Source: Gemmatimonadota bacterium (GTDB lineage: Bacteria; Gemmatimonadota; Gemmatimonadetes; Longimicrobiales; Gaopeijiaceae). Taken from it: a stretch of DNA of 64,000 nt. Below the pieces are notes generated by a model. That model searched no databases and was not told where the DNA came from. It was given only the letters and a program-made list of their open reading frames with translations. This document shows positions 61,858 to 63,103 of this stretch, piece after piece. The DNA lies in contig JAJCZZ010000063.1 in the NCBI GenBank assembly GCA_029262115.1, forward strand, positions 62,001 to 126,000, read 5' to 3'. The translations under genes and the position numbers were made by a program. The number at the start of each line of letters is the position of its first letter. Position 1 is the first letter of the stretch.

Positions 61858-62910
61858 TCAGGCGGGCCGATCGCTGTCATCGAAGAGGTCGAGGTACTGA
61901 GCGAAGGCGAACCGCCGGTACGTCTTCTTCCCGGTGATCTCGCGGAGGATGCCCACGGCCTCCATCGCATTGGTCAGAGCGTTCGCAGCCGGTTGGGAGA
62001 GGCCGGTTATCGTCCTCACTCGGGCCACGTTGACGATGGGGTTCTGGAATAGTTCCTCCAGCAGTTGAAGCGCCGGGGCCGCGCGGCGACCCAACGTTTG
62101 ATGGATCTCCGATCTGGTCGACTCCCGAAGTCTTACGATTTTTCGGGCGGTATCGGTCGCCTCTTCCGAAACCGAAGCCACGCCCTCCAAAAAGAACGCG
62201 ATCCACCCCTCCCAATCACCCCTCTCACGAATAGCCTGAAGCCGATCGTAGTAGTCCTGGCGGTGACGCTTGAAGAAGATCGAGAGATAGAGAATCGGCT
62301 CCCTGAGAACCTTCTCCTCAACCAGGATGAAGGTGATCAGGAGACGCCCTATTCTCCCGTTCTCGTCCAGAAACGGGTGGATCGTCTCGAACTGAGCATG
62401 GGCGAGGGCGACGCGTACCAGAATGGGTAGGTCCGACTCGGCATGCAGGAAGTCCTCCAGTTCGTGGAGCGCGGACGTCATGGCGGGAACCGGCGGCGGC
62501 ACGTATCGCGCGGTGGCAGGGGTGGGGCCTCCAATCCAATTCTGAGAGCGCCGGAACTCGCCGGGCGTCTTCGCAGGCTCCCCACCCCGTACGCCGTGCA
62601 TGAGCTTCCCGTGAATCTCCCGGATCAGCCGGAGCGAAAGGGGAAGGTTCTCCACTCGCTCCAAGCCGTACCGCAACGCACCGACGTAGTTGGCGACCTC
62701 CCTCACGTCGACCTTCCTATCCGCTCGCTCGAGCTGAGCCTCGTACTCGAGGAGGTCTACCAGCGAGGCCTCGGTACCCTCGATCTGGCTCGAGAGAACG
62801 GCTTCCCTCCTCACGTACATGTAGACGAAGAGATCAGGGTCGGGCAGGATTTCGGCAGACCCGACCAGCCTCCCCAGCGCCAGGGTCGCACGCTCGAGTT
62901 GGTCCGCCAT
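61858..62910 (-). CDS. Fic-family protein
   Basis: At least 350 residues. The Fic core has HPFLDENGRIGR with His178. The inhibitory motif SSQIEGTEAS (Glu44) is N-terminal, so it is a class II Fic protein in which the helix is in the same chain. A winged-helix domain near residues 285-340 (IVNVARVRTITGLSQPAANA) is DNA-binding-like. The likely reaction is AMP transfer from ATP to a protein hydroxyl. In-frame residues upstream of this ATG (QRAGSFRKQPAGFEAFAPAR) look like the usual Fic N-terminus and continue to 63018 without ATG, GTG or TTG. The true start may be a CTG at 63018 or may be lost. Confidence 0.88.
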   Translation of the reverse strand: MADQLERATLALGRLVGSAEILPDPDLFVYMYVRREAVLSSQIEGTEASLVDLLEYEAQLERADRKVDVREVANYVGALRYGLERVENLPLSLRLIREIHGKLMHGVRGGEPAKTPGEFRRSQNWIGGPTPATARYVPPPVPAMTSALHELEDFLHAESDLPILVRVALAHAQFETIHPFLDENGRIGRLLITFILVEEKVLREPILYLSIFFKRHRQDYYDRLQAIRERGDWEGWIAFFLEGVASVSEEATDTARKIVRLRESTRSEIHQTLGRRAAPALQLLEELFQNPIVNVARVRTITGLSQPAANALTNAMEAVGILREITGKKTYRRFAFAQYLDLFDDSDRPA

Positions 62911-63035
62911 CCCGTCCAGTTGGAGGTCGGCCGGCGGAAATCGCGCGGGGGCGAAGGCCTCGAACCCGGCAGGCTGTTTGCGAAAGGACCCGGCTCGCTG
63001 GTCGTGGGAAGTGGACAGGGCGTCGCTTGCCTAAG

Positions 63036-63103
63036 CTTATGTGACGAAGGGGCTCCCATAAGAATAACGTACAAACCTTATTTTACGGCACCCCTTTCAT
63101 AAG
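63036..63103. promoter_or_regulatory. Two 27-bp dyads upstream of the Fic gene
   Basis: Element A (63036-63062) has arms CTTATG and CATAAG with 15 bases between. Element B (63077-63103) has CTTATT and CATAAG, also 15 apart, and a CCTTAT/ATAAGG outer form. Each is 27 bp and centres are 41 bp apart, about four helical turns. The stretch is AT-rich unlike the surroundings. A TATTCT candidate -10 (63066-63061, minus strand) overlaps element A. The arrangement suggests binding by a dimeric repressor, perhaps the winged-helix end of the Fic protein itself. Confidence 0.6.

What the first reader, a model, noticed from the sequence alone, without database searches (positions are those of the whole stretch)
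63036..63103. Tandem 27-bp dyads with identical geometry upstream of fic
Both elements have CTTAT...ATAAG ends at a fixed spacing and share further bases inside. They are 41 bp centre to centre and lie in an AT-rich island over the predicted fic promoter. The C-terminal winged-helix domain of this Fic protein makes autoregulation plausible. I know of no described operator of this form.
Basis: partly seen in the sequence, partly recalled or inferred. Interest (0 to 1): 0.6.

Follow-up and report, generated by a model that had tools for sequence, protein, structure and literature searches.

The report
Tandem self-repression sites before fic toxin
The two repeated DNA sites in front of this fic (AMP-transferase toxin/defence) gene are real and very probably where the protein's own DNA-binding tail lands to hold its gene in check; the same spaced-repeat layout, written in different letters, sits in front of about half of the related genes examined across many phyla.

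Summary
Two 27-bp CTTAT-N17-ATAAG dyads lie at 63036-63062 and 63077-63103, 41 bp apart. The 68-bp composite occurs once in the 5.45-Mb genome, even allowing 3 mismatches. Only 2 of 20,000 shuffles of the intergenic region gave a comparable tandem pair. The gene behind them encodes a SoFic-type Fic protein (PADLOC E=4.7e-118) with a modelled C-terminal winged helix.

The layout recurs across the family. In 109 upstream regions of homologues, inverted repeats are enriched, and direct repeats pile up at offsets of 30/31 and 40/41 bp (plus a small peak at 15). A held-out set of 72 (phage contigs, named plasmids) repeats the 31 and 41 peaks and adds 51: three, four and five DNA turns. The spacing stays fixed while the repeated words differ. 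It is absent from coding, downstream and further-upstream DNA.

Best explanation: cooperative autorepression by Fic dimers on same-face tandem operators. There is one experimental precedent, CccR of Yersinia (PMC9755527), with a different operator layout. I found no description of the tandem 31/41/51-bp pattern. Covariation with the recognition helix was tested and not shown. DNA binding itself is inferred. New variant of a known kind.

The parts
63077..63103 (.). Distal dyad (-85 to -59 from the fic start), CTTAT-N17-ATAAG; putative Fic operator 1
   Evidence: Sequence; tandem pair 2/20,000 in shuffles; spacing class conserved in the family
63036..63062 (.). Proximal dyad (-44 to -18 from the fic start), CTTAT-N17-ATAAG; putative Fic operator 2
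   Evidence: Same as the distal dyad; 17 of 27 positions identical to it at offset 41
63036..63103 (.). 68-bp composite of the two dyads, unique in the genome
   Evidence: Whole-genome pattern search with up to 3 mismatches, one place only
61858..63018 (-). fic coding sequence (386 aa), SoFic type; start assigned to CTG at 63018 by homology
   Evidence: Pfam Fic_N and Fic, PADLOC SoFic, start alignment
62776..62793 (-). Inhibitory motif SSQIEG (class II Fic, residues 76-81)
   Evidence: Translation; S77, E80, G81 invariant in the alignment
62353..62379 (-). Catalytic Fic motif HPFLDENGR (residues 214-222)
   Evidence: Translation; invariant positions in the alignment
61888..62091 (-). C-terminal winged helix (residues 310-377); recognition helix residues 342-354 at 61957-61995
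   Evidence: Structure model, pLDDT 88 overall; fold match to SoFic 3eqx

Best explanation
The two dyads are operators for the Fic protein encoded just downstream. A Fic dimer is proposed to place its two winged helices on the two CTTAT half-sites of each 27-bp dyad, whose centres are 22 bp or about 75 Angstrom apart. Two dimers would sit on the same face of the DNA four helical turns (41 bp) apart and bind cooperatively. They would cover the promoter between -85 and -18 and repress transcription, keeping a potentially toxic AMP-transferase at a low set level. Other SoFic-family genes use the same layout, with two or three dyads at 31, 41 or 51 bp, while the operator sequence has diverged. Shown: the dyads, their rarity, the family-wide phased spacing, the winged helix in the model. 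Inferred: that this protein binds them, that binding is cooperative, and that the result is repression.
For: (a) Dyads real and unique in the genome. (b) 109 non-redundant homologue upstreams: exact 6-bp-arm inverted repeats enriched at spans of about 17-34 bp (span 27: 26 seen, 3.3+-1.5 shuffled); direct repeats enriched at 15, 30, 31, 40 and 41 bp only (41: 18 against 1.7). (c) 44% of fic upstreams carry a 30/31/40/41-bp repeat, against 10% of control genes and 6% of shuffles. (d) The peaks persist when homologues are clustered at 70% identity (39 clusters). (e) Held-out 72 sequences: 31 bp 23 against 2.4, 41 bp 21 against 1.6, 51 bp 8 against 1.6. (f) Combined 181: secondary peaks at 62 (2x31) and 72 (31+41); 14 three-copy arrays; signal in -120..+6 only (55%, against 12-17% elsewhere). 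(g) 130 different 6-mers make up the repeats of 47 sequences, so geometry is conserved more than letters, as expected of private operators. (h) Nearest relative L063 keeps ATAAG at -61 and -20, 41 bp apart; L065 has CTTATTTATACGTATATATAAATAAG repeated at 40 bp. (i) Confident model with a winged helix. (j) Published autorepression by the Fic-HTH protein CccR, with footprint, EMSA and lacZ fusion.
Against: Covariation between recognition helix and operator was tested twice and not shown; the helix did no better than other protein segments. No sigma-70 consensus promoter was found. One clade (helix LSAPTVA/LSGPTVA) mostly lacks the AT-rich dyads in the assigned upstream region. The CccR operator is a single inverted repeat with a 26-bp spacer, not tandem dyads. 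Coxiella Fic2 binds random DNA with high affinity, and SoFic DNA binding was undemonstrated as of 2023 (PMC10628234). The L063 copy keeps only one arm of each dyad exactly.
Confidence: 0.78

Rival explanations
1. The dyads are operators of a different transcription factor, encoded elsewhere, that controls fic; the Fic winged helix does something else.
For: No binding by Fic was shown; recognition-helix covariation was not demonstrated.
Against: The composite site occurs once in the genome, so such a factor would serve fic alone. Across lineages the words differ while the spacing stays, which suits a regulator carried with the gene. CccR is a self-regulator.
Confidence: 0.1
2. The stretch works as RNA: the 68 nt form a hairpin in the fic leader that controls translation or transcription.
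For: The 68 nt fold with z -4.26; the 81-nt stretch has z -2.65.
Against: The same stretch of the nearest relative does not fold (z +1.6) although the ATAAG sites are kept; no Rfam match; no terminator-like site. Half-sites that alternate CTTAT/ATAAG pair with one another anyway, so some folding follows from the operator layout.
Confidence: 0.07
3. Chance or neutral repeats: an AT-rich intergenic stretch that happens to hold two similar dyads, or remnants of a small mobile element.
For: A single 5-bp-arm dyad of this kind is expected about once by chance in a genome of this size; the reversed control pattern also occurs once per strand.
Against: Tandem pair in 2/20,000 shuffles; spacing class replicated in 181 homologue upstreams including a held-out set; no other copy in the genome.
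Confidence: 0.05

Closest known systems
CccR of Yersinia pseudotuberculosis (class II Fic + C-terminal HTH; PMC9755527; I take PDB 7xux to be its structure)
   Same: [quoted passage not shown] experimentally a negative autoregulator. The window's half-site centres are about 75 Angstrom apart.
   Different: Distant relative (7xux: phmmer E 1.9e-14; TM-score 0.57). Its operator is one 46-bp AGATAATCAT-N26-ATGATAATCT inverted repeat, not two tandem 27-bp dyads 41 bp apart.
SoFic (SO_4266; anti-phage defence protein; structures 3eqx, 3zcn)
   Same: Same domain layout and fold (TM-score 0.75-0.79); PADLOC SoFic model at 4.7e-118.
   Different: Only about 26% identical, and below NCBI's SoFic equivalog cut-off (161.8 against 550 bits). 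DNA binding by SoFic was not demonstrated as of 2023.
Tandem-operator autoregulation of toxin-antitoxin systems (Phd/Doc, AbiE)
   Same: Several repeats in the promoter bound cooperatively by the system's own regulator (general knowledge; AbiE abstracts).
   Different: There the antitoxin is a separate DNA-binding protein; here toxin and putative repressor are one chain.
Coxiella burnetii Fic2 (8cil)
   Same: Fic protein with a winged helix that binds DNA.
   Different: Bound random DNA; no operator is known (PMC10628234).

Membership tests
SoFic-type Fic proteins (anti-phage defence) | Fic_N and Fic domains with catalytic motif HPFx[D/E]xN and inhibitory motif S/TxxxEG | tested here: met
   Pfam Fic_N 4.4e-26, Fic 1.2e-17; HPFLDENGR and SSQIEG present and conserved
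SoFic-type Fic proteins (anti-phage defence) | Match to the PADLOC SoFic model | tested here: met
   E 4.7e-118; all 26 aligned members match
SoFic-type Fic proteins (anti-phage defence) | NCBIfam equivalog NF046030 cut-off (narrow SoFic) | tested here: not met
   161.8 bits against a cut-off of 550: a relative, not an orthologue
SoFic-type Fic proteins (anti-phage defence) | Protects against phage; AMPylates a target | not testable with these tools
   Needs phage challenge and an AMPylation assay
Fic-HTH autorepressors (CccR type) | C-terminal HTH/winged helix on a Fic protein | tested here: met
   Model pLDDT 88; helices 310-323, 331-338, 342-354 and wing strand 369-371
Fic-HTH autorepressors (CccR type) | Inverted-repeat sites in the gene's own promoter region | tested here: met
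   Two dyads at -85..-59 and -44..-18; family-wide enrichment
Fic-HTH autorepressors (CccR type) | CccR-like operator: 10-bp boxes with a 26-bp spacer | tested here: not met
   Here 5-bp arms with a 17-bp spacer, in tandem
Fic-HTH autorepressors (CccR type) | Binding of its own promoter and repression | not testable with these tools
   Needs EMSA/footprint and a reporter
Fic-HTH autorepressors (CccR type) | Operator changes together with the recognition helix | tested here: inconclusive
   Partial correlations weak and no higher than for other protein segments

The most novel reading that the evidence does not exclude
A whole superfamily of one-chain toxin/repressor Fic proteins, widespread in bacteria and on plasmids and phages, uses a common phase-locked operator grammar. 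Two or three dyads are set at 31, 41 or 51 bp, so that Fic dimers stack on one face of the DNA. Each lineage has its own recognition sequence but the spacing is kept, so expression of these defence toxins is set by cooperative self-assembly on DNA.
Probability: 0.6. Interest if true: 0.72.

Novelty: new variant of a known kind. Interest (0 to 1): 0.6.

Why it matters
Fic-winged-helix proteins are common and include an anti-phage defence family, yet in the literature I could search, control of their own expression through DNA binding has been shown in one case only (CccR). DNA binding by SoFic itself was noted as undemonstrated in 2023 (PMC10628234). A spacing rule that holds across distant lineages gives a direct, testable handle. 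It predicts operators for about half of the family from sequence alone and predicts dimer-dimer contact on DNA. It also offers a reason why these toxins could be carried without a separate antitoxin gene.

Tried and rejected
Recognition-helix/operator covariation: partial Mantel-type test and sliding-window scan along the protein. The helix was not special; the linker control scored alike and the peaks lay elsewhere, so I make no claim. Operator words are short and AT-rich, which limits the test.

Regulon search with the literal motif: only the fic site.

Consensus promoter and terminator scan: none. Rfam: none.

RNA hairpin: significant in the window but not kept in the nearest relative.

Replaced by viral contigs and plasmids as the held-out set.

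The ORF start at ATG 62910 was rejected in favour of the homologous start at 63018.

A first print of upstream regions read the wrong side of minus-strand loci from the genome search; it was redone in the right orientation and one search is not used for statistics.

Full report
OBSERVATION. The window holds two 27-bp dyads, CTTATGTGACGAAGGGGCTCCCATAAG (63036-63062) and CTTATTTTACGGCACCCCTTTCATAAG (63077-63103), both CTTAT-N17-ATAAG and 41 bp apart. In register they share 17 of 27 positions. CTTAT-N15..17-ATAAG occurs nowhere else in the 5.45-Mb genome. The 68-bp composite occurs once even with three mismatches, and its reversed control not at all. Of 20,000 dinucleotide shuffles of the 127-bp intergenic stretch, 2 gave any tandem pair of dyads with the same arms and span.

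THE GENE. The gene on the minus strand is a Fic_N + Fic protein. Its closest defence-system model is SoFic (E 4.7e-118); NCBI's narrow SoFic equivalog cut-off is not reached. The 350-aa ORF that starts at ATG 62910 lacks the conserved N-terminus, and no ATG, GTG or TTG lies further upstream in frame. The codon aligned with the ATG of the closest relative (L063/L031, 71-73% identical) and with the TTG of a truncated paralogue in the same genome (L088) is CTG at 63018. From that start the dyads lie at -85 to -59 and -44 to -18. An AlphaFold model from 26 sequences (mean pLDDT 88.4) ends in a winged helix (residues 310-377, recognition helix 342-354). It matches SoFic 3eqx best (TM-score 0.75-0.79) and 7xux, which I take to be CccR, less well (0.57).

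FAMILY TEST. I collected homologues (most 44-73% identical) from the window's phylum and other bacteria, set start codons by alignment, and kept 109 non-redundant upstream regions of about 126 bp. Exact 6-bp-arm inverted repeats are enriched at spans of about 17-34 bp (span 27: 26 seen, 3.3+-1.5 in shuffles). Direct 6-mer repeats rise at offsets 30, 31, 40 and 41 (10, 13, 11 and 18 seen, about 2 expected each), with a smaller peak at 15, and nowhere else. The 30/31/40/41 signal is present in 44% of fic upstreams, 10% of control genes and 6% of shuffles; strong inverted repeats (score 10 or more) in 27%, 8.5% and 0.7%. The peaks persist after clustering homologues at 70% identity (39 clusters). 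The repeats of 47 sequences are made of 130 different 6-mers, so the spacing is conserved much more than the letters.

HELD-OUT REPLICATION. A separate set, 80 loci from viral contigs and 12 named plasmids (Cyanobacteriota, Alphaproteobacteria, Deinococcota, Enterobacterales, Bacillota and Halobacteria), gave 72 non-redundant regions. Direct repeats stood at 31 bp in 23 (2.4 expected), at 41 bp in 21 (1.6 expected) and at 51 bp in 8 (1.6 expected); 45 of 72 carried a 30/31/40/41-bp repeat. In all 181 regions there are also peaks at 62 and 72 bp (31+31, 31+41), and 14 sequences have three copies. The signal is confined to -120..+6 (55% of sequences); coding, downstream and further-upstream stretches of equal length give 12-17%. 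Offsets of 31, 41 and 51 bp differ by about one helical turn, so the sites face the same side of the DNA.

CLOSEST COPIES. L063 keeps ATAAG at -61 and -20, again 41 bp apart, with only one arm of each dyad exact. L065 (62% identical) has CTTATTTATACGTATATATAAATAAG, a 26-bp dyad of the same half-sites, part of which is repeated at 40 bp. The recognition helices of the window protein and L063 are identical over LSQPAANALTN. L023/L060, a fic with an internal deletion that removed the catalytic motif and recognition helix, has none of these sites upstream; this is a single case and only suggestive.

MECHANISM. The most likely working is autorepression. Fic dimers would bind each dyad (half-site centres 22 bp, about 75 Angstrom apart, close to the 70 Angstrom between the DNA-binding helices of CccR), and two dimers four turns apart would bind cooperatively and cover the promoter. 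The published precedent is CccR. Its footprint is AGATAATCAT-N26-ATGATAATCT, binding needs the C-terminal domain, mutation of the palindromes abolishes it, and the deletion mutant derepresses a lacZ fusion 3.3-fold (PMC9755527). Binding, cooperativity and repression are inferred here. DNA binding by SoFic itself was stated to be undemonstrated in 2023 (PMC10628234).

WHAT DID NOT WORK. I could not show that operators change together with the recognition helix; two tests gave weak values no higher for the helix than for other segments. One clade with helix LSAPTVA/LSGPTVA mostly lacks the AT-rich dyads. No consensus promoter was found. The 68-nt stretch could fold as an RNA hairpin (z -4.26), but the nearest relative's does not.

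LIMITS. Homologues are related to one another, so shuffles alone overstate significance; clustering, control genes, control regions and the held-out set are the answers to that. Start codons were set by alignment, not mapped. The taxonomic make-up of the viral contigs is not known, and some may be host DNA.

NOVELTY. A Fic-HTH protein repressing its own gene through inverted repeats is known once. Across six literature searches I found no description of tandem operators at 31/41/51 bp as a general rule of the SoFic family. The library is open-access only, so a report elsewhere cannot be excluded. I therefore call this a new variant of a known kind.

Noticed in passing
window 63016-63018 (- strand): fic has no ATG, GTG or TTG at its homologous start; CTG stands where the closest relative has ATG and the own-genome truncated paralogue TTG. 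A rare start codon or a weakened start.
   Followed up: partly
window 63036-63103: The 68 nt also fold as one long imperfect RNA hairpin (AAAGGGG/CCCCTT and CCGTAAAATAA/TTATTCTTATGG), z -4.26; not kept in the nearest relative.
   Followed up: partly
L088 (G000:C50:3000-6500), match 1288-1569 on the minus strand: The window's genome holds a second, truncated fic (residues 1-95, 65% identical) with its own CTTAT/ATAAG sites upstream.
   Followed up: partly
L023 / L060, from position 148: A Gemmatimonadetes MAG has a fic with an in-frame internal deletion joining about residue 95 to about 360; it lacks the catalytic motif and the recognition helix, and its upstream region has no AT-rich dyads.
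   Followed up: partly
L114, L121, L097 upstream regions: The clade with recognition helix LSAPTVA/LSGPTVA seems to use other inverted repeats (TTCGTTAG...CTAACGAA or similar) further upstream instead of AT-rich dyads.
   Followed up: no
L018, L019, L020, L089 upstream regions: More distant Fic-winged-helix paralogues (about 30% identical) also appear to have private repeats upstream, for example GACATGTCGTC twice in L019 and TGAACTAA...TTAGTTCA in L020.
   Followed up: no
combined homologue set: A small extra direct-repeat peak at 15 bp (10 of 109 sequences, about 2 expected), half of the 30/31-bp spacing; not seen in the held-out set.
   Followed up: no
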